Origin: Galdieria sulphuraria | Taxonomy: Eukaryota; Rhodophyta; Bangiophyceae; Galdieriales; Galdieriaceae | Length of the DNA stretch: 64,000 nucleotides | Reading direction: 5' to 3' | Assembly (NCBI RefSeq): GCF_000341285.1 | Contig: NW_005178421.1 | Location: forward strand, 1 to 64,000 | In this document: positions 5,676 to 61,652 of the stretch, piece by piece | How positions within the stretch are numbered: position 1 is the stretch's first letter | How the letters are laid out: the number at the start of each line of letters is the position of its first letter | Notes under the pieces: generated by a model | Seen by the model: the letters and a program-made list of their open reading frames with translations, nothing else | The model's database searches: none | Told to the model about the DNA's origin: nothing | Position numbers and translations under genes: made by a program

Positions 5676-6533
5676 CTACTCTTTGGTACTTTTGGAACGC
5701 TTATTTCTTGAGCTGGAAGAAAAGTAGTTCTCTATACTGTATTGATGGGTGATAGAGTTGGTTTCCTCTCGAGTCCTTTTATACGAAATCAACTCAACTC
5801 CGTCATTCTTCACGCTGTTTACAAGAGGAGACGCTCGCTGTACTTTGAGATCCCCGTCAAACGGTTTCAATACTGCTATGGCTTCTTTTAGAGAAAACCT
5901 TTTTACGTCTAACCATTCGTCCAACTGATCTAGCTTTAATAGGGCAGGCATCCTATCATGTAGCCAAGCCACGGAAGGACTAGCATCCACTGTTATAATA
6001 GTGAATTGATCTTCTTTATTGGCTTTTGCTTTTGGAAGATCATAAACTACCGCCATATATAGAGGACCGTTTTCTTCTGAAACGAAATAAGGACTCTTTC
6101 TTTTCTCATCTGCAACATTTTGCCACTCGTAAAAACCGTTTGCTATCAAGACCCCTCTTCCGCCTGCTTCTAGAGGAATTTTAAACATACTTTTTCCAAG
6201 CAGTGTCTCACTTCGTGCGTTGATGCAACTCTTAGCAGTATTTGCGTCATTGCGGGACCAAAAAGGTTGTAATCCCCATTTCATAACGTGTAACACACGT
6301 TTCATATCGAAAGTTGTCTTGAGAACATCACAATCTTGTTCCTGAGGTTCCTCTTTAACCTCTAATTGTTCTTTTTTTGGCTGGTCTGGAATAAAAGTTC
6401 GAACTATAGGCACATAAGTACTGGGAGCCACATTGTATGAAGTGTGATACTTTTCTGCGTTTATCCAACTTTTTGTTCCACTTATGTTTTCCAGTTCCTT
6501 CTTACTGAAAGCAAATACGAAGCGCCCACACAT
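5676..6533 (-). CDS. HMCES/YedK-type SRAP-domain protein with C-terminal PIP box
   Basis: SRAP proteins crosslink covalently through Cys2 to abasic sites in single-stranded DNA and shield them at replication forks. This intronless gene encodes 285 aa. It begins MCGRF, so Cys2 is exposed once Met1 is removed. It keeps the DNA-binding and active-site segments SCINARSET, GFYEW (catalytic Glu) and HDRMP (catalytic His), in family order. The last 50 residues are basic and Ser-rich and contain QYSIENYF, which fits the PCNA-interacting pattern QxxIxxYF. Human HMCES is reported to bind PCNA, and bacterial YedK lacks such a tail, so this one looks replication-coupled in the eukaryotic manner. It is divergent from eS27 with 172 bp between start codons. 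Confidence 0.95.
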   Translation of the reverse strand: MCGRFVFAFSKKELENISGTKSWINAEKYHTSYNVAPSTYVPIVRTFIPDQPKKEQLEVKEEPQEQDCDVLKTTFDMKRVLHVMKWGLQPFWSRNDANTAKSCINARSETLLGKSMFKIPLEAGGRGVLIANGFYEWQNVADEKRKSPYFVSEENGPLYMAVVYDLPKAKANKEDQFTIITVDASPSVAWLHDRMPALLKLDQLDEWLDVKRFSLKEAIAVLKPFDGDLKVQRASPLVNSVKNDGVELISYKRTREETNSITHQYSIENYFSSSSRNKRSKSTKE

Positions 6534-7821: not shown

Positions 7822-9591
7822 ATGTCATCATTGAGATGCAGCTCTAGTCTTCTTGTTCACCGTCGTCGCTGTGTTTTCAACCCAAGAAGGACTTGTAGTA
7901 CAGTAGCTTCGTTGATTGAACGAGAATTGTTAAAGTTACAGAGTAAAGCAATGAAAGGTGACGCTGATGACGCAAACGATGTATTGACAAATTCTTCTCA
8001 AGTCGAAAGCCGAAAGGAAACCATTTGCGAAGGCAAGGGAAAAGTAGTATACAACAGTGGACAAGTATTTTATAACAAAGCACAAGCATTCAACAGAGAC
8101 CTATCAGTTCTCGTGTTGAACTACTTTGTTTCAACTTGTTTAAACGAAATGGAACAAGATAAGAAGCTTCAAAACTCCCGGGCACTATCTTACAAACGAG
8201 TGATCGATGACAAGCAGAAGACTTGCAAGTACGCTCAAATGAGACTTGATTCATCAACCTGGAAGAATCCAGTGGACCATTTTTCAGTCTTTGAAGCGTT
8301 TTCTGCCACCGGTTTGCGTGCCATACGTTATGCAACCGAAGTGCCTCATCTGTTTCCCATCATAGCAAACGATATGGACCAGGCTTCTTATGAAACCATT
8401 CAACAGAGTCTTTTATTGAATGAGAATGTACAAGGTAAGGTATTTGCCAACTTGGGAGAAGCCACGGATGTCATGTACAAACATCGTTTTGGAGCAAGTC
8501 AATGGGATATTATTGATCTCGATCCTTATGGTACAGCTGCACCATTTGTAGATTCTGCTATGCAGTCAATTAAGAATAGAGGTTTGTTATGTGTTACCAG
8601 TACAGATATGCGTTCACTTGCAGGAGTACAAGGCGGTATTTGTTTTGCACGTTATGGCTCAGTCCCTTGTACTTGGCCAAAGGCGTATCGCAATGAAGTT
8701 GGACTTCGCATTCTTTTATCATTTCTACAAAAAACAGCTAGTCGATATGGTAAATATGTGGAACCCCTACTAGCAATATTTGTAGATTTTTATGTGCGAG
8801 TATTTGTACGTGTCTATGAATCCGGTTTGCAATCACAACGTTCGATACAACACCAAGCTTATGTATATGCCTGTAATAGTTGTCCATCGTTTTTCTTACA
8901 ACCACTTGGTGCTATTAGAAACTTTGGAGAAGCCAATGAAAAGGTGGTTTGTGCCAAAGGCCCTCCTGTAGAAGGCGCTTGTCCTTATTGTCATTCGGAA
9001 CTTTCTCTCTATGGACCTATCTATACAGGAGCTATCTTTCAACAAAATGTAGTTGAAAAACTACTCCATCAACTAGAAAACGATTCCAAATGGTCCTATT
9101 TACCTTGTAAAGAGCGTCTAAAAGGATTTCTCACAGTGCTTTGTCATGAATGTGCTGATATTCCTTTGTTTGTGGATTGCAATGATATGTCCAAATTGCT
9201 AAGAACGAGTCCACCTCCACAAGCCTCCATTCGTGAAGTGTTAAGAAAACGAGGATATCGAGTGTCTACTTCTCATTTGAGACCAACCGCACTGAAAACC
9301 GATGCACCTTTCGAACTCATATGGGATATCATGAGAATATGGGTACAGAAGAATGGATTGAATAATATAAAGCCCCACGATGCCGCATCACGCATCATGG
9401 CAACGGAACCATTTCATATTTCACCCGAAGAGATTGACTTTCAGATACATAAAGATGCTTTCAATAGTTGTCATTCGGTTACTAGATATCCCCCACTGGA
9501 GAAACATCATGGTCCAGGAAAGAGAGCAACCGGAAAGAGAAAAATGGATCCAAACAAGTTACCAGGGCAAGATTTAGAAGATGAATTATAA
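7822..9591 (+). CDS. TRM1: tRNA (guanine26-N2)-dimethyltransferase
   Basis: TRM1 makes m2,2G26 in cytosolic and mitochondrial tRNAs. This single-exon gene encodes 589 aa. After an Arg-rich N-terminus that may target mitochondria come the family signature AFNRDLSVLVLNYF, the SAM-binding motif FEAFSATGLRAIRY (residues ~154-168), the acidic ANDMDQ and the catalytic DLDPYG (~232-237). Three CxxC pairs (CNSC ~350, CPYC ~386, CHEC ~440) form the zinc-bearing C-terminal region. The family-typical SHLRPTALKTDAPFELIWD follows, and the tail is basic (GPGKRATGKRKMDPNK), as in other TRM1 enzymes. All catalytic elements look intact. Its stop is four bases from the stop of a diverged paralogue on the other strand. 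Confidence 0.97.
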   Translation: MSSLRCSSSLLVHRRRCVFNPRRTCSTVASLIERELLKLQSKAMKGDADDANDVLTNSSQVESRKETICEGKGKVVYNSGQVFYNKAQAFNRDLSVLVLNYFVSTCLNEMEQDKKLQNSRALSYKRVIDDKQKTCKYAQMRLDSSTWKNPVDHFSVFEAFSATGLRAIRYATEVPHLFPIIANDMDQASYETIQQSLLLNENVQGKVFANLGEATDVMYKHRFGASQWDIIDLDPYGTAAPFVDSAMQSIKNRGLLCVTSTDMRSLAGVQGGICFARYGSVPCTWPKAYRNEVGLRILLSFLQKTASRYGKYVEPLLAIFVDFYVRVFVRVYESGLQSQRSIQHQAYVYACNSCPSFFLQPLGAIRNFGEANEKVVCAKGPPVEGACPYCHSELSLYGPIYTGAIFQQNVVEKLLHQLENDSKWSYLPCKERLKGFLTVLCHECADIPLFVDCNDMSKLLRTSPPPQASIREVLRKRGYRVSTSHLRPTALKTDAPFELIWDIMRIWVQKNGLNNIKPHDAASRIMATEPFHISPEEIDFQIHKDAFNSCHSVTRYPPLEKHHGPGKRATGKRKMDPNKLPGQDLEDEL

Positions 9592-9595
9592 TATA

Positions 9596-11470
9596 TTATC
9601 CATTCTTATTGTTATTCACAAAAGTAGGTACAATTTGAGTCTGTATTCGTTCATTGGGATGATGCAAACGACGAAAGAATCGTTCATCCTTTGAAATGGC
9701 CAACATTTGTTCGGTATGATGCGATGAGAGCCATTGTTCCCATTCTTTGCTATGGTAATACAATAATGGTTTGTAAGATAATAGATAATGATTGCTGTCT
9801 GGCTCACAATAAAGTTTCCAACTCTTCCACACGTCCCAAACAACATCCAAAGGTGCATTGGTTTTCAAGCCATGAAGACTAGTATGTGATGGAAATGCTT
9901 CGTAACCTCTACTCTTCAAAGCAGTATACAACAACTCTGTTCCAGGACTGTGAATTTGAAACAATGCATTCATCTTTTCTATATCTAAAAAGAAAGGAGA
10001 ACATCTACTTTCTGCAGCCATTGTGGAGAACAATACTTCCATATCCGCTGCATTGGCCAAAGTAAGAGTTGCTTTGTGTCCATTCAGACTGCGCGAAACA
10101 GGAACAATAAGTTCGTGTAGTATTCTACTTGACTCACGAGTCTGACACAAACCTTCCAAATATACAGTTCCTCCAAAATGCCAAGGAGATGTGCCACAAT
10201 ATTCACACAACTTACTCCACTTATTTTGTGAACCGTAATAATCTTGTCTTTCTGCAGGTGTACATTCAAGAGCTCGGATCCAGTACGAATAACAATGGGG
10301 ACAATAATAAAGCAAACCACTTCTTCTAGTCCAACCTTGTTGACCATATAAATCCTTTCGAACCCTAAGCCATATATGAGCACGTGTCCCTTCCAACATA
10401 CAAGAGAATACAGGTTCCAAATAAGCTTGATGAACAAATGCAGACTTTACCAACTCATCTAAAAACTGTCGAAGTTGAAATTCTGCCGCAAATGGAACGG
10501 ACTGCCATTCCTCTGAAAGTTTTGGAAGATTGACATGAACACACAACAGGCCATAATCTGCCACAGAACGAATGGCAAACTCCAACAGACTGTGGATACA
10601 ATTATCTGAAAAGTAATTATCGTCTAATATGATTACATCTTGAGCACCTTTTCCTATGCCAAATATATTACCTCCCCATTCCAATCCTCTCCTTTCCATA
10701 GAACCATCAAGCAAAGTATTCTCATACAAGACGACAATATTTCCCAATTTTGCCACTTCCAAACGCAAACGACGAGCTAAAATGTTTGCATGTTGAGTAG
10801 CCACAGTGACTGAATATCTCTTGGTAAAAAGTCGTCGACACACTTCTGAAGAAAACCAATCCTTCCTTTCTTCGAAAGATAAACGTTCAAAAGCGGATTC
10901 TGGAATATTCAATCTTTCAAGCCACTCTTTCTTCAGTTCTTTCGAATCTTGTCCAAGACAACAAGAAGCATATATGGTATGTCGATGGCGATAAAACTGT
11001 CTTTTCAATTCTGTACCTCGTCTACGTTGAAACCAACGAACAGCAAGTAAAGAAAGGTCTCTTTCAAACGATTGCTTCTTGTAGTTGATTCTTCTTTCCA
11101 ACGGTACACTAGCTTCTTGATAACTACCTTCCACATAGTTGGAGACATCCAACTCTGGCATCACGGGGTATTGCAACCATTCCAAGCTTGCTCTATCATC
11201 TTGAACATAAACAGAACGTCTCTTTTTCCAGTGTTGTACAAAGCCTAAAGAACCAACATTCTTCTTGACTCGTACTCGCACGGGAGTTGGACAATACTCA
11301 TCCATTTTGGGTAACGGGTCACTTGTACACAAAATATCCAACAGAGTATCGTTTTTGGTTTGCCTTTCTATGAGTTCCTCATTCTTGGTTTTCGTACATA
11401 ACCTTAAATAATGTTTCCAATTGAGTACTACTCGTGGAAGCCTATTGAGTCTTTTCATTCTCCTCGGCAT
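9596..11470 (-). CDS. Degenerate TRM1 paralogue (probable pseudoenzyme)
   Basis: A single-exon gene of 624 aa that aligns along its length with the adjacent TRM1 but has lost the catalytic core. Shared anchors are SFERDLSLLAVRWF (TRM1: AFNRDLSVLVLNYF), DYGLLCVHVN (NRGLLCVTSTD), the two zinc CxxC pairs CPHC (~389) and CEYC (~421), and SHTSLHGLKTNAPLDVVWD (SHLRPTALKTDAPFELIWD). In place of the catalytic DLDPYG it has ILDDNYF (~282), and no FxAFSATGLR SAM motif is visible; that region is replaced by unrelated sequence. It may be a regulatory or structural partner of TRM1, analogous to TRMT1L-type paralogues, or a protein that binds tRNA without methylating it. The frame is long and clean, so it is a gene under constraint and not a pseudogene. 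The start at 11470 (MPRRMKRL) lies 28 bp from the CPSF73 start. Confidence 0.85.
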   Translation of the reverse strand: MPRRMKRLNRLPRVVLNWKHYLRLCTKTKNEELIERQTKNDTLLDILCTSDPLPKMDEYCPTPVRVRVKKNVGSLGFVQHWKKRRSVYVQDDRASLEWLQYPVMPELDVSNYVEGSYQEASVPLERRINYKKQSFERDLSLLAVRWFQRRRGTELKRQFYRHRHTIYASCCLGQDSKELKKEWLERLNIPESAFERLSFEERKDWFSSEVCRRLFTKRYSVTVATQHANILARRLRLEVAKLGNIVVLYENTLLDGSMERRGLEWGGNIFGIGKGAQDVIILDDNYFSDNCIHSLLEFAIRSVADYGLLCVHVNLPKLSEEWQSVPFAAEFQLRQFLDELVKSAFVHQAYLEPVFSCMLEGTRAHIWLRVRKDLYGQQGWTRRSGLLYYCPHCYSYWIRALECTPAERQDYYGSQNKWSKLCEYCGTSPWHFGGTVYLEGLCQTRESSRILHELIVPVSRSLNGHKATLTLANAADMEVLFSTMAAESRCSPFFLDIEKMNALFQIHSPGTELLYTALKSRGYEAFPSHTSLHGLKTNAPLDVVWDVWKSWKLYCEPDSNHYLLSYKPLLYYHSKEWEQWLSSHHTEQMLAISKDERFFRRLHHPNERIQTQIVPTFVNNNKNG

Positions 11471-11498
11471 CCCATTTTCTATTCTATTTTACGAACTT
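11471..11498. promoter_or_regulatory. 28-bp divergent spacer between start codons
   Basis: Only 28 bp separate the start codons of the TRM1-like gene (minus) and CPSF73 (plus). Unless both messages are nearly leaderless, their 5' leaders must overlap and each promoter must extend into the neighbouring coding region. I see no clear TATA box inside the spacer. Confidence 0.45.
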
Positions 11499-13751
11499 AT
11501 GGGCGATCCAACATCCAACGTGAATGACGCAGTTCTCAACTCACAAGAATTGTTAGCAGACGAAACTTTGCAAGTACGTACTTCCTGTTCTCTCTTTACT
11601 TTTTCGAATAACTCTTCTTACAGATAACACCTTTGGGAGCAGGAAATGAAGTGGGTCGGTCTTGTGTCTTACTTACTTACAAGAACAAGACCATCATGTT
11701 CGATTGTGGTGTTCATCCCGCCTATTCTGGTTTAGCTTCACTTCCTTTCTTTGATGAAATGGACCCACGTTCCATCGACCTTATTTTAATAACTCACTTT
11801 CATTTGGATCACTGCGCAGCGTTGCCTTATCTGTTGGAAAAGACCAACTGTAATCCAAACGCCCGAGTATTCATGACGCATCCTACCAAAGCCATTTACA
11901 AAACACTGTTGAGTGACTTTGTTCGAGTAAGTTCCAACGAAGACGTTCTCTATTCCGAACAAGATTTATCGAGAACCATGAAAAGAATCGAAACCCTTGA
12001 TTATCATCAAGAAATGAACTGGAACGGTATTCGTTTTTGGGCGTATAACGCGGGACATGTATTAGGAGCTGCCATGTTCCTAGTAGAAATTGCTGGAGTT
12101 CGAGTCTTATATACGGGAGACTTTTCTAGACAAGAAGATAGACATTTGAAAGAAGCAGAGATACCACCATTTCCTCCAGATATTATAATAGTAGAAAGGT
12201 AAGATGTATCAACATTGAAAGAATAGAGAAATGCTGACAACATCAAGTACATATGGGGTTCAAGTACATGAACCACGAAAGATTAGAGAAGCTCGATTTA
12301 CACAAAAAGTAGCCGAAATTGTTCGAAGAGGTGGCAGAGTATTGCTTCCAGTATTTGCTTTGGGACGTGCTCAAGAGTTGTTGTTGATTTTGGAGGAGTA
12401 TTGGGAAGCTCATCCGGATTTACAAGATATTCCTATTTATTATGCTTCTTCTTTAGCTAAGAGATGTATGTCGGTATATCAAACATATATCAATATGATG
12501 AACGATAATATAAGGAAACGTTACGAAGTCTCCAATCCTTTTGCATTCAAATATGTATTGAATGTAAAGAACATTCAAGATTTTGATGATTCGGGTCCTT
12601 GTGTGTTTATGGCATCTCCTGGAATGTTACAAAGTGGTCTTTCCAGAGAACTATGTGAAAGATGGTGTACGGATAGAAGAAACGGAATCATATTGCCTGG
12701 TTACTCAGTTGAAGGAACTTTGGCCAAACATATATTATCTGAACCTTCCACTATAACTCGTTTGGATGGAAAGGAAGTACCATTACGTTGTAGTGTCGAT
12801 TATATTACATTTTCTGCTCATTCTGACTTTCTTCAAACAAGCGAATTTATCGATCGTTCGCGTTCAGGTCATATTGTTTTGGTACATGGCGAAATGACTG
12901 AAATGGGAAGGCTTCGAAATGCTTTGGACTTGAAATACAACAAAGGACAAAGTGTTCCGAATATTCGTATCTATACTCCTAAGAATTGTCAAACGGTTCG
13001 CCTCACTTTTCGAGCAGAAAAAGTTGCCAAAGCGATTGGAGAAGTAGCGAAACGGAAACCTGAAGATGGTGCTAGTATGTCAGGTATTTTGGTAAAGCGA
13101 GACTTTAACTATACTTTGATGAGTCCTAATGAGTTGAACACTTATACTGGTTTGAAAGTGAGTCGAATACAACAGCGTTTGGTTGTTCCATTAAAGAAAC
13201 CATTTTCTCAACTTGCTACTGAATTGAATCACTTATTGGAAGGCACAGTATTGGATATAGATGAAGAAACGAAAAGACCTCAATTGGATATTTTGGGAGC
13301 CATTCAAGTGACTCTTTTAGAAGATGGAGAATCGGCATCTGTGGAATGGTGTACCAATTATGCCACCGATATATTGGTGGAGAATATTGTCTATCTTTGT
13401 ATAACCCATTCGATAACTTCAGCGCCTGTATTGGCCATGGATGCTGTTTCTGTATATCGCAGTAAACAGTCTTCATCGTTTGAAGAAGAGGAAAAAGATG
13501 AAGACTTTCTATACTCTGCTTTATCGATGAGTAGGAAATTGTTAGAAGAACGTTTTGGTGCATTGCAAGTGATAGACGAAGACAAGTCCCGTTTTCAAGT
13601 GGATAGCATAGATGTTATCGTAGATCATCGACGTGGCATTGTGGAATGTGAACAGCACAACATCAGAGAGAGAGTAGAGTTGGCTTTAAGAAGAATTTAC
13701 ACTATCATGTTTCCTATTCCTGATTACTTTTGTGAATGTTGTGGTTGTTGA
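11499..13751 (+). CDS. CPSF3: Cleavage and polyadenylation specificity factor 73 kDa subunit
   Basis: CPSF73 is the metallo-beta-lactamase endonuclease that cuts pre-mRNA 3' ends before polyadenylation. Three exons (11499-11573, 11624-12198, 12248-13751) give 717 aa. The zinc motif HFHLDH (~83-88) is intact, with [11 protein letters not shown] downstream, the beta-CASP segment [11 protein letters not shown] rebuilt across the second splice site, [26 protein letters not shown], and the closing histidines in FSAHSDF and [11 protein letters not shown]. The C-terminal ~200 residues match the CPSF73 C-terminal domain. I chose the ATG at 11499 (MGDPTSNV). A start at 11421 in the same frame is not an ATG-based extension I would trust. 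Confidence 0.97.
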
Positions 13752-40078: not shown

Positions 40079-41731
40079 CTATTTCTTTCCTTGTTTTCTA
40101 TTTGCACTGGTCGTTTGCTTCTTATTATTGTTAGACCCTTGAAAAGGTTTTCTACCTCTACTTCTTTTGGTTTCCAATAAAGGTTTCTGTTCTTGACTTT
40201 TGCGTACTTCTTCATTCAGTTGATGAATGAACTTGGTGAGTCTTTCCATTCTAGTAGTTGCAGAAAGTCCATGTGTTTGTTGAATAAACAATGCTAAACG
40301 ATTCACCTGTTCTGCAGACCAATGATCTTGAGGAAATACTTTAACTAATTGTGATATATCTACCAAATTGGTAAAGTTTGGTTTCTTTTCCACTTGCTTC
40401 AGTCTTGCTCTTAGTTCATCAAGTGCATTGAGTTCTAAAGAATCTTCCTTCTTATTCTTGGGAATTTCTTGTGGATAAAGTTGTTCTTCTTCATCTGATG
40501 ATTGCTTCACCTTTTTGCTTTCTTCCATAGTGGAACCTTTTGAGGTGCTTTGTCTAGAAGCCAACTTTTTACTACTATACTCTTTTATCAATTGCTTTGC
40601 TGTTTCTTCATCCAATGAAAACTTTCCTTTCCTCTTCAACACATCTCGAACCTTTTCTTCAAATTCCTTTTGAACTTTTTCCTTTTGATCAGCTTCTTCT
40701 TCTAATATGCGTTGAGTTACTAATCTTCCAGGTGGATTCTTTTTTCTTCCATTGCCCGATGCATTATTTCCCGTAGTTCCAGAATGACTAACACTACTAC
40801 TAGTGCCATTACTATGATAGCTGCTGCTACTCAACTGACTGGAATCAGAGACGTTCCCACGCAAACTACTTTCTCTATTCACCACAGCTTTGGTATCGAA
40901 AAGATTGGCAACATTTCTTTCTTTAAACCGAAATACGCGATCTTTTCCTACCGTTTCTGGTAAAATGACGGTGGTGTTGGGACAATCTATGCGTGTCTTC
41001 AAAAAGGCATGCACGTAAGCATTTTCTTGTCGGATATGGCGATAGCTTTTAGATAAATCATAATACTTCCCTGACTCATGTGCTATGAACTTTGCCAAGT
41101 CTGAAGATTCCGGTTGTTGTCCTCGAAACTTGTGATTCAATGCGGATAGCACCGATTGGGAACTGTCTGAATGGCTAGTCGATAACGATATTGAGATAGT
41201 ATTATTATTATTACTGTTGTTGTTATGATAGGAGATACTTTGAGTTGTCATAGTCTCATGGGAAGTATACGAAGTCTGATGAGCGCCGTTGATAGAAGAA
41301 AGAGACGCTTCAGCGGTTTCTTGATATTCACAGTGATTAGCATCAGAATATGAAGATGAGTTGAAATGATTCGCGCCATGGACTCCATTTTGCTCCTCTC
41401 TTACAACTAAACTATCAGCGTTCCACAAACTGGGATCGCCTTGGGGTCGTTGATAAGGAGGCAAATAAGAATGTGAGAGACCGTTGGTGGTCAAAGATGA
41501 GTTAGGTTGTGAAGTTGGTTCCCTTCTTTCCAGCTGATCTTGATGTTTATCGTCCCATTCTAAGGAGGCACTTACTGGAGCTTGGGTAGATCGGGAGTGA
41601 ATGGTTTGAAGAAACGGTCCCAAATGAGAACAGGGCCAACTCAGCGAGGAGATGTCCACTGTAGCCTTGCTTCCTGAAAATAGTTTGTAACAAGGATGCC
41701 AACAACAACACCACAACCCACGATGATACAT
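40079..41731 (-). CDS. Unknown Ser/Asn-rich protein with charged coiled-coil half
   Basis: A clean 550-aa single-exon frame with an ATG at 41731. I do not recognise the family. The first ~200 residues are Ser/Asn/His/Gln-rich low complexity with a poly-Asn tract, without transmembrane segments. A more ordered block (~205-300) contains LAKFIAHESGKYYDLSKSYR and CPNTTVILPETVGKDRVFRF. A Ser/Gly-rich linker and a long Lys/Glu-rich helix region (EEEADQKEKVQKEFEEKVRD) follow. The C-terminal ~30 residues are strongly basic with RSRGRKPF, suggesting binding to nucleic acid or a nuclear role. It shares a 62-bp divergent spacer with ILVD. Confidence 0.75.
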   Translation of the reverse strand: MYHRGLWCCCWHPCYKLFSGSKATVDISSLSWPCSHLGPFLQTIHSRSTQAPVSASLEWDDKHQDQLERREPTSQPNSSLTTNGLSHSYLPPYQRPQGDPSLWNADSLVVREEQNGVHGANHFNSSSYSDANHCEYQETAEASLSSINGAHQTSYTSHETMTTQSISYHNNNSNNNNTISISLSTSHSDSSQSVLSALNHKFRGQQPESSDLAKFIAHESGKYYDLSKSYRHIRQENAYVHAFLKTRIDCPNTTVILPETVGKDRVFRFKERNVANLFDTKAVVNRESSLRGNVSDSSQLSSSSYHSNGTSSSVSHSGTTGNNASGNGRKKNPPGRLVTQRILEEEADQKEKVQKEFEEKVRDVLKRKGKFSLDEETAKQLIKEYSSKKLASRQSTSKGSTMEESKKVKQSSDEEEQLYPQEIPKNKKEDSLELNALDELRARLKQVEKKPNFTNLVDISQLVKVFPQDHWSAEQVNRLALFIQQTHGLSATTRMERLTKFIHQLNEEVRKSQEQKPLLETKRSRGRKPFQGSNNNKKQTTSANRKQGKK

Positions 41732-60413: not shown

Positions 60414-61652
60414 ATGATGAATGCCTTTATTTCATCGTCTTGTTTTCAATGCGGTCGACTCGTTTTGCGTTGTCCACAGAAAAGCAAAGTTTTATGTTCC
60501 AAGAAAGGAATTCAAAAATTTCGTGCTGTTCCAGTGGAGTCCAGAATTTCGGAAAATTTGAAAACCTTATTTGAAACATATAAAATTGCAACTTCCGAAA
60601 CTTCAAAGCACAAAAAGTTGTTGTTGTCTCACTTTGAAGCGCTGGATATTCTGGAATACTTGGAGTTTAACTGCAAAGATAGTTCGAATTGGATCGATCT
60701 AGAGAAACCTTTGCAAGTGCATCTTGGTTGGAAGTGGGTTTCTCAGTTGAAGGTCATCGATCAAGGATTGCACTTATACTTGGACTTTGGTCCAGTATTC
60801 TTCAGTTGGCATGCTTTGACTGATTTTTTAGGAATAGACTCTCATTATCGTCCTTTTATAGAAAGGAATAGTCAGTTAACGCAAGAGTCTTTTAAGAAGA
60901 AACGCCCAAAGCGTATCTCTATAAGAAACTGCAAAATACGTCCAGGCGTGCTATTATGGGAAGAAGAAGATGTGGCACATTCACATGTTCAAAGAGTATC
61001 CTTCTTTTCTGCTTCAACAAAGCGCCCCATCACTTTAGTTCCTATTACGAGAGATAGTCCACCCACAGCTATTATTGGTGGTTTTACTATGCACCGAGGC
61101 TATTCCGATAGTCTTACAATGAATCCCGGTTTGGATACGCAACTTAAGATAGATTGCCTTTATCCTCTTGCTCCAAAAAGCAGAGTACTCGATATTTGTA
61201 CAGGACTGGGTTACACTGCGATAGAGTTGTTACAAAGATATCCAGACATAGAGCAGCTAATAACGATTGAAATAGACGAGAGTATGGTGTTGTTGCAACA
61301 AATCAATCCGTGGTCCTCCGCATTAATCAATGGCAATCGTGAAGTTGTTCATCGCCTACTCGTAGACGCCACCACAATATTGCCAAAATTGCCTGATAAC
61401 TATTTTCAAGTGATTATTCACGACCCTCCTTCGCAATCTCTACAAGGAGATTTGTATTCTTACGACTTTTACTGTCAACTTGCGAGGGTGTTAAGTCCTA
61501 GTGGACAAATGTATCACTATATAGGAAACCCAAATAGTAGAGAAGCTGGAAGACTATATCAAGGAGTTATAGATAGATTGCAAAGAGCAGGTTTTGGTAG
61601 AATTGTCAAAAAGTCCCAAGCATATGGAATTATAGGAATCAAGACAAACTAA
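60414..61652 (+). CDS. SAM-dependent methyltransferase, archaeal-type (COG2521-like)
   Basis: A single-exon 412-aa protein. The C-terminal half (~250-410) is a class I methyltransferase: motif I VLDICTGLGYTAIELL, the acidic TIEIDES, NPWSSALI, then IIHDPPSQSLQGDLYSYDFY and YHYIGNPNSREAGRLYQGVI, and RLQRAGFGRIV. The strings NPWS, HDPPxxSLxGxLYS and HYxGNP are those of the archaeal predicted methyltransferases of COG2521. The N-terminal ~240 residues hold a Cys-containing start (CFQCGRLVLRC), Lys-rich stretches and a central domain I cannot place. The substrate is unknown; modification of RNA or polyamine-like compounds is possible. Absence of introns and archaeal affinity raise gene transfer as a question. 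Confidence 0.82.
   Translation: MMNAFISSSCFQCGRLVLRCPQKSKVLCSKKGIQKFRAVPVESRISENLKTLFETYKIATSETSKHKKLLLSHFEALDILEYLEFNCKDSSNWIDLEKPLQVHLGWKWVSQLKVIDQGLHLYLDFGPVFFSWHALTDFLGIDSHYRPFIERNSQLTQESFKKKRPKRISIRNCKIRPGVLLWEEEDVAHSHVQRVSFFSASTKRPITLVPITRDSPPTAIIGGFTMHRGYSDSLTMNPGLDTQLKIDCLYPLAPKSRVLDICTGLGYTAIELLQRYPDIEQLITIEIDESMVLLQQINPWSSALINGNREVVHRLLVDATTILPKLPDNYFQVIIHDPPSQSLQGDLYSYDFYCQLARVLSPSGQMYHYIGNPNSREAGRLYQGVIDRLQRAGFGRIVKKSQAYGIIGIKTN

What the first reader, a model, noticed from the sequence alone, without database searches (positions are those of the whole stretch)
7822..11470. Tail-to-tail TRM1 and a catalytically dead TRM1 paralogue, stops 4 bp apart
Seen: the two single-exon genes converge with 4 bp between stop codons and align along their length (AFNRDLSVLVLNYF/SFERDLSLLAVRWF; GLLCVTSTD/GLLCVHVN; ALKTDAPFELIWD/GLKTNAPLDVVWD). 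The minus copy has ILDDNYF where TRM1 has DLDPYG and no SAM-binding FxAFSATGLR. Known: TRM1 needs both elements for catalysis. Inference: an inverted duplication produced a pseudoenzyme that is still under selection, perhaps a tRNA-binding partner or antagonist of TRM1. The convergent layout would also give antisense-overlapping 3' ends between an enzyme and its dead copy.
Basis: partly seen in the sequence, partly recalled or inferred. Interest (0 to 1): 0.78.

Follow-up and report, generated by a model that had tools for sequence, protein, structure and literature searches.

The report
Galdieria pseudoenzyme copy of TRM1
Beside its normal tRNA-methylating gene TRM1, the hot-spring red alga Galdieria keeps a second, heavily changed copy that has lost most of the methylating site but is preserved across the genus, which suggests a new, methylation-free job in handling RNA, possibly in mitochondria.

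The parts
7822..9591 (+). TRM1, tRNA (guanine26-N2)-dimethyltransferase, 589 aa, one open frame, catalytic motifs present; Arg/Ser-rich N terminus, second in-frame Met at residue 44
   Evidence: PF02005 354.4 bits; TIGR00308 302.9 bits, over the 280.65 cut-off; Met positions
9592..9595 (.). 4-bp gap between the two stop codons
   Evidence: sequence; ordinary for this genome
9596..11470 (-). TRM1-derived pseudo-methyltransferase, 624 aa, one open frame (public model Gasu_53540 has only 475 aa)
11381..11470 (-). N-terminal 30 residues: 10 Lys/Arg, no Asp/Glu, presequence-like
   Evidence: simple features, no trained predictor
10982..11050 (-). residues 141-163, 23-residue run invariant in 4 of 4: LLAVRWFQRRRGTELKRQFYRHR, predicted helical
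   Evidence: helix 124-161 in the model
10763..10813 (-). residues 220-236, position of motif I: SVTVATQHANILARRLR in place of SVFEAFSATGLRAIRYA
   Evidence: alignment A4
10607..10639 (-). residues 278-288, position of motif IV: DVIILDDNYFS in place of DIIDLDPYG; second Asp kept as D283
10196..10303 (-). residues 390-425, retained CxxC...CxxC (C390, C393, C422, C425), putative zinc knuckle
   Evidence: invariant in 4 of 4; aligned with TRM1 cysteines
9800..9991 (-). residues 494-557 (approximate), best retained C-terminal TRM1 block: RGY...SH....(L/V)KTNAP...WD

Best explanation
The minus gene is a pseudo-methyltransferase derived from TRM1 and so far seen only in Galdieria. Shown by sequence and prediction: it has the TRM1 domain order and predicted TRM1 fold; residues that hold S-adenosylmethionine and form the active-site loop are gone in the 4 proteins found; the CxxC pairs and C-terminal block remain; a new strongly basic stretch is invariant; and the protein has been kept through the genus. 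Inferred: it binds tRNA or another structured RNA through the retained C-terminal domain and the basic helix without methylating it, acting as an RNA chaperone or scaffold, most likely in an organelle (mitochondria favoured). This would be the catalysis-independent half of what Trm1 does in fission yeast, split off into its own gene.
Against: No expression, localisation or binding data. The presequence-like N terminus is clear in 2 of 4 proteins, arguable in P0005 (5 K/R, 1 acidic; Arg-rich after an internal Met) and absent from the P0006 model (3 K/R, 4 acidic), whose start may be wrong. R137, D138 and D283, aligned with TRM1 R92, D93 and D234, are kept in 4 of 4, so ligand binding is not excluded; 19 of 49 conserved C-half columns are lost in all 4, so the C-terminal half is not intact either. 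The good model was made with 26 TRM1 rows in the alignment, which pulls it toward TRM1. Orthologues are protein models; no dN/dS. In S. pombe the D201A mutant failed with more defective tRNA alleles, so the chaperone part alone is weaker. RNA binding here is inferred from fold and charge.
Confidence: 0.5

Rival explanations
1. A non-catalytic subunit of TRM1 itself: the pseudoenzyme pairs with the neighbouring TRM1 and positions tRNA, as Trm6 does for Trm61 (recalled).
For: The catalytic paralogue is encoded next door, and relatives of both are found in Galdieria. The G. phlegrea models carry consecutive JGI ids 3964 and 3965, which suggests kept linkage. Galdieria TRM1 has an unusual active-site loop, CTWPKAYRNE in 4 of 4 rows, where 21 of the 22 other TRM1 rows have His-Glu, so it may have changed too.
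Against: TRM1 of other organisms is taken to work without such a partner (recalled); Galdieria TRM1 scores as a full equivalog. The model names of the two G. phlegrea genes (G2579, G2625) are not consecutive. No complex could be predicted here.
Confidence: 0.2
2. It is the red-algal counterpart of plant TRM1c (AT3G56330), an old, divergent TRM1 paralogue with a predicted plastid transit peptide, and not a Galdieria-specific duplicate.
For: TRM1c is found from a green alga to flowering plants, is divergent (27% identity to human TRMT1) and gave no detectable m2,2G in the yeast assay (PMC7704012, passages; predicted plastid also in PMC2956550, passage). The trees do not tie the minus gene to Galdieria TRM1.
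Against: The authors of PMC7704012 think TRM1c highly likely to be the active plastid enzyme and could not rule out poor expression or localisation. Sequence and profile searches returned only 4 Galdieria proteins, though that search needs shared 5-residue words and scored 7,996 candidates each time. Adjacency to TRM1 would then be a coincidence. TRM1c sequences were not at hand to compare.
Confidence: 0.12
3. An active methyltransferase with an unusual SAM site.
For: R137, D138 and D283 are kept in 4 of 4 and a Rossmann-like core of six strands is predicted.
Against: The glycine and acidic residue at the motif I position, the Pro and Gly of motif IV and the C274-G279 loop are missing in 4 of 4, the motif II Asp in 2 of 4; no other methyltransferase family matches better.
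Confidence: 0.08
4. The layout is the point: overlapping 3' ends give antisense control between enzyme and dead copy.
For: 4 bp between stops, so 3' UTRs must overlap or lie in the other gene.
Against: Such gaps are common here: 5 of 15 (150-codon map), 3 of 9 (200) or 3 of 5 (250) convergent pairs closer than 400 bp lie within 20 bp in 264 kb, this pair counted in. No excess of shared synonymous codons (47 of 101 against 41.2 expected, p 0.12), so no sign of conversion.
Confidence: 0.04
5. A decaying pseudogene.
For: Catalytic residues lost; faster change than TRM1 (51.1% against 66.8% identity).
Against: 624-codon open frame here, protein models of 593-636 aa in 3 other lineages, 229 invariant residues, invariant runs of 23 and 12 residues.
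Confidence: 0.02

Closest known systems
TRM1 / Trm1 (PF02005, TIGR00308)
   Same: Domain order, predicted fold, CxxC pairs, C-terminal block with KT(D/N)AP
   Different: Motif I, most of motif IV and the active-site loop lost; new basic helix; 53.1 bits against the 280.65-bit equivalog cut-off
Human TRMT1L
   Same: A divergent TRM1 paralogue that does not make m2,2G26 on cytosolic tRNA (PMC7704012, passage)
   Different: Animal paralogue; said to ensure tRNA modification together with TRMT1 (title of a 2025 Cell Rep. paper seen in a reference list; that paper is not held; activity at G27 is recalled). Sequence not compared here
Plant TRM1c (AT3G56330)
   Same: Divergent TRM1 paralogue with predicted organelle targeting, no activity detected in yeast (PMC7704012, passages)
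   Different: Plant and green-algal; its authors think it the likely plastid m2,2G26 enzyme; catalytic motifs not stated in the passages read; not compared here
Trm6 of the Trm6-Trm61 m1A58 enzyme (recalled)
   Same: Catalytically dead paralogue kept beside an active one
   Different: Trm6 binds Trm61; no interaction is shown here
S. pombe Trm1 D201A (PMC10652106, abstract and passages)
   Same: TRM1 protein without catalysis that still binds tRNA and is active in an RNA annealing assay
   Different: A laboratory mutant of the enzyme, not a natural separate gene

Membership tests
TRM1 enzyme family | PF02005 domain over the curated cut-off | tested here: met
   62.8 bits against 27, but only profile positions 182-375 of 376
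TRM1 enzyme family | Equivalog score TIGR00308 of at least 280.65 bits | tested here: not met
   53.1 bits
TRM1 enzyme family | SAM-binding motif I (SATG(L/I)R) | tested here: not met
   absent in 4 of 4 proteins
TRM1 enzyme family | Motif IV DLDP(Y/F)G | tested here: not met
   LDD in 4 of 4; the second Asp kept, first Asp, Pro and Gly lost
TRM1 enzyme family | Trm1 fold with C-terminal domain | tested here: met
TRM1 enzyme family | m2,2G26 activity | not testable with these tools
   needs protein or mutant
Non-catalytic subunit of an RNA-modifying pair (Trm6 type) | Active paralogue in the same genome | tested here: met
   TRM1 with intact motifs at 7822-9591; activity itself not tested
Non-catalytic subunit of an RNA-modifying pair (Trm6 type) | Binds the active paralogue | not testable with these tools
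Plant TRM1c orthologue group | Groups with TRM1c in a tree | not tested
   no TRM1c sequence was at hand
TRMT1L orthologue group | Groups with TRMT1L in a tree | not tested
   no TRMT1L sequence was at hand

The most novel reading that the evidence does not exclude
When the Galdieria lineage lost 16-19 mitochondrial tRNA genes and its mitogenome began to change very fast, a tandem copy of TRM1 was turned into a methylation-free, mitochondrion-targeted tRNA-binding protein that receives imported tRNAs or holds the remaining degenerate mitochondrial RNAs in shape in a hot, acid-living cell: a tRNA-modifying enzyme's hidden chaperone activity made into a gene of its own.
Probability: 0.18. Interest if true: 0.75.

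Novelty: new variant of a known kind. Interest (0 to 1): 0.5.

Why it matters
Some tRNA-modifying enzymes (TruB, TrmA, and S. pombe Trm1 in PMC10652106) are reported to help tRNA fold independently of catalysis, which is shown there by mutating the active enzyme. A natural, conserved TRM1 copy without the active site would be a ready-made separation of function. It is also, as far as found, restricted to a genus whose mitochondria lost most tRNA genes, which makes a role in organelle tRNA supply directly testable by localisation and CLIP.

Tried and rejected
Other methyltransferase families as the true home of the minus protein: not favoured; family and fold searches lead to TRM1. Viral origin: two scans of viral contigs found pattern matches (1 and 159 stretches) but no relative, and the best viral fold matches are weak (2 with E up to 0.001). 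Gene conversion between the copies: no excess of shared synonymous codons; the 34-nt inverted repeat 9293-9326/9834-9867 is the homologous KT(D/N)AP stretch. Dating the duplication by trees: unresolved. In the full tree (42 rows, 484 columns) the dead clade is 100/100 on a stem of 4.9 changes per column, with letter make-up unlike the rest; dead + Galdieria TRM1 74/54; dead + archaeal side not rejected (p 0.395). In the C-half tree (30 rows, 292 columns) dead + Galdieria TRM1 is not in the best tree and is not rejected (p 0.189). Further paralogues in the genome: none with either protein at E up to 1. Papers: none holds Gasu_53540; two narrow searches gave no paper; listings (20 of 57 shown; 20 of 70; 10 of 14; 2 of 2) showed nothing on this gene by title and abstract start. 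dN/dS was not done: no orthologue DNA was at hand. The N-terminal 111 residues are low-confidence in the model and were barely tested by the fold searches.

Full report
What is there. The window lies in a 12.0-Mb, 102-contig assembly that I take to be Galdieria sulphuraria: the public protein Gasu_53540 is identical over its first 474 residues to the minus protein read from its second Met. TRM1 (7822-9591, +, 589 aa) and the minus gene (9596-11470, 624 aa) are single open frames with four bases between their stops. A family search of the whole assembly finds exactly these two PF02005 genes, and searches with either protein find no third copy.

Is it dead? By sequence, very probably. Of 80 alignment columns conserved in at least 92% of 26 TRM1s, all four minus copies keep 35, none keeps 32 and 13 are mixed; in the N half (TRM1 residues below 250) 10 of 31 are kept by all and 13 by none, in the C half 25 of 49 and 19. 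Lost in 4 of 4: the Phe and Asn of VFYN, the Asn of NRD (now Glu), the Ala, Leu and Arg of SATGLR, the first Asp, Pro and Gly of DLDPYG, both Thr of TSTD, and C274, Y278 and G279 of the active-site loop, most of which is deleted. Kept in 4 of 4: the Arg and Asp of NRD, the second Asp of DLDP (D283), the CxxC cysteines, and the C-terminal G-Y, H, KT.AP and WD residues. The second Asp of DLDP aligns with Pyrococcus D138 by my count along the alignment; that it is the catalytic base is recalled and fits the role described for S. pombe D201 (PMC10652106, passages; the equivalence of numbering was not checked).

Is it kept? Relatives were found in G. partita (P0003, 79%), a source without a name (P0005, 61%) and G. 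phlegrea (P0006, 51%), besides the short public model P0004; a second search with the alignment gave the same four. These are protein models; their DNA was not seen. The search needs shared five-residue words: P0006 shares 61 with the query, while 116 TRM1s of about 31-39% identity share some 8-27 with Galdieria TRM1 (every 14th value printed), so a distant orthologue in other red algae could have been missed. Between G. sulphuraria and G. phlegrea the minus protein is 51.1% identical and TRM1 66.8%: faster, but constrained. 229 of 624 residues are invariant in 4 of 4; the longest invariant run, LLAVRWFQRRRGTELKRQFYRHR (141-163), is not reached in 20,000 shuffles of the positions, and the model makes residues 124-161 one helix. 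In TRM1 this place holds a variable insert. The feature that is new and basic is thus also the least variable one.

Origin. The trees cannot say. The dead clade is firm (100/100) but sits on a stem of 4.9 changes per column; its sister position to Galdieria TRM1 has 74/54 support, a position on the archaeal side is not rejected (p 0.395), and in the C-half tree the Galdieria grouping is not found in the best tree and not rejected (p 0.189). Adjacency is the better argument: that the only two family members found in a genome with some 6,600 genes (number recalled) are neighbours has a chance of about 2 in 6,600. G. phlegrea models of the two genes carry consecutive ids 3964 and 3965, though their model names are not consecutive, so kept linkage is likely but not shown.

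The convergent layout. In the window plus 20 stretches of 10 kb, crude maps of long frames give 31, 19 and 16 adjacent convergent pairs at thresholds of 150, 200 and 250 codons; 15, 9 and 5 of them are closer than 400 bp, and 5, 3 and 3 of these lie within 20 bp, this pair counted in. The maps ignore introns and short genes. The 4-bp gap looks ordinary; a paper calls this genome highly streamlined, with reduced intergenic regions (PMC5880011, passages).

How it may work. TRM1 holds tRNA with its C-terminal domain and nearby basic surface (inference from the fold). In fission yeast a catalytically inactive Trm1 (D201A) binds pre-tRNA with affinity comparable to wild type, promotes suppression by one tRNA allele though not by more defective ones, and is active in an RNA annealing assay (PMC10652106; abstract and passages). 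The minus protein keeps the C-terminal block, loses the methyl-donor site and gains a basic helix; a methylation-free RNA binder is the simplest reading. The N terminus of P0001 (10 K/R, no D/E in 30) and P0003 (7 and 1) looks like an organelle presequence; P0005 (5 and 1) is arguable and P0006 (3 and 4) does not. Among Galdieria TRM1s, P0002 (6 and 0) does, P0008 (4 and 2) and P0009 (4 and 1) are arguable, and P0007 (4 and 4) does not. G. sulphuraria TRM1 has a second Met at 44, in line with the nuclear and mitochondrial localisation known for yeast and human TRM1 (PMC7704012, passages). [quoted passage not shown] That the pseudoenzyme serves imported or degenerate mitochondrial tRNAs is my inference and the boldest reading left open.

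What it is not shown to be. It is not filed as a TRM1 enzyme, because motif I, motif IV and the equivalog score were tested and not met. Whether it belongs with plant TRM1c or animal TRMT1L could not be tested, as no such sequence was at hand. Searches of the paper library (listings only, except where passages are named) showed no report on this gene; most subscription papers are not held there.

Noticed in passing
11470-11499: The start codons of the pseudo-TRM1 (minus) and of CPSF73 (plus, ATG at 11499 read by eye) are only 28 bp apart, so the gene is squeezed between 28 bp and 4 bp on its two sides.
   Followed up: partly
9596-11470: The public model Gasu_53540 (P0004, 475 aa) departs from the open frame after 474 residues and lacks most of the C-terminal TRM1 block; it has no Pfam domain listed, which probably hid the family.
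   Followed up: yes
7822-9591: Galdieria TRM1 has a changed active-site loop, CTWPKAYRNE in 4 of 4 Galdieria rows, where 21 of the 22 other TRM1 rows have His-Glu.
   Followed up: no
11499-13751: CPSF73 homologue (metallo-beta-lactamase, beta-CASP and CPSF73-100_C domains) with two short introns, about 11574-11623 and 12199-12247 by eye.
   Followed up: partly
5676-6533: SRAP-domain protein on the minus strand, 180.3 bits.
   Followed up: no
60414-61652: 412-aa frame with a match just under the cut-off to the Pfam 'methyltransferase small' domain (22.8 bits, cut-off 23).
   Followed up: no
40079-41731: 550-aa open frame without a Pfam match at E 0.001.
   Followed up: no
G000 contigs C62:1504-2211 and C72:317-1024: Two GCD14 (PF08704) frames of the same length (338 aa) near contig starts; possibly an assembly or recent duplicate.
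   Followed up: no
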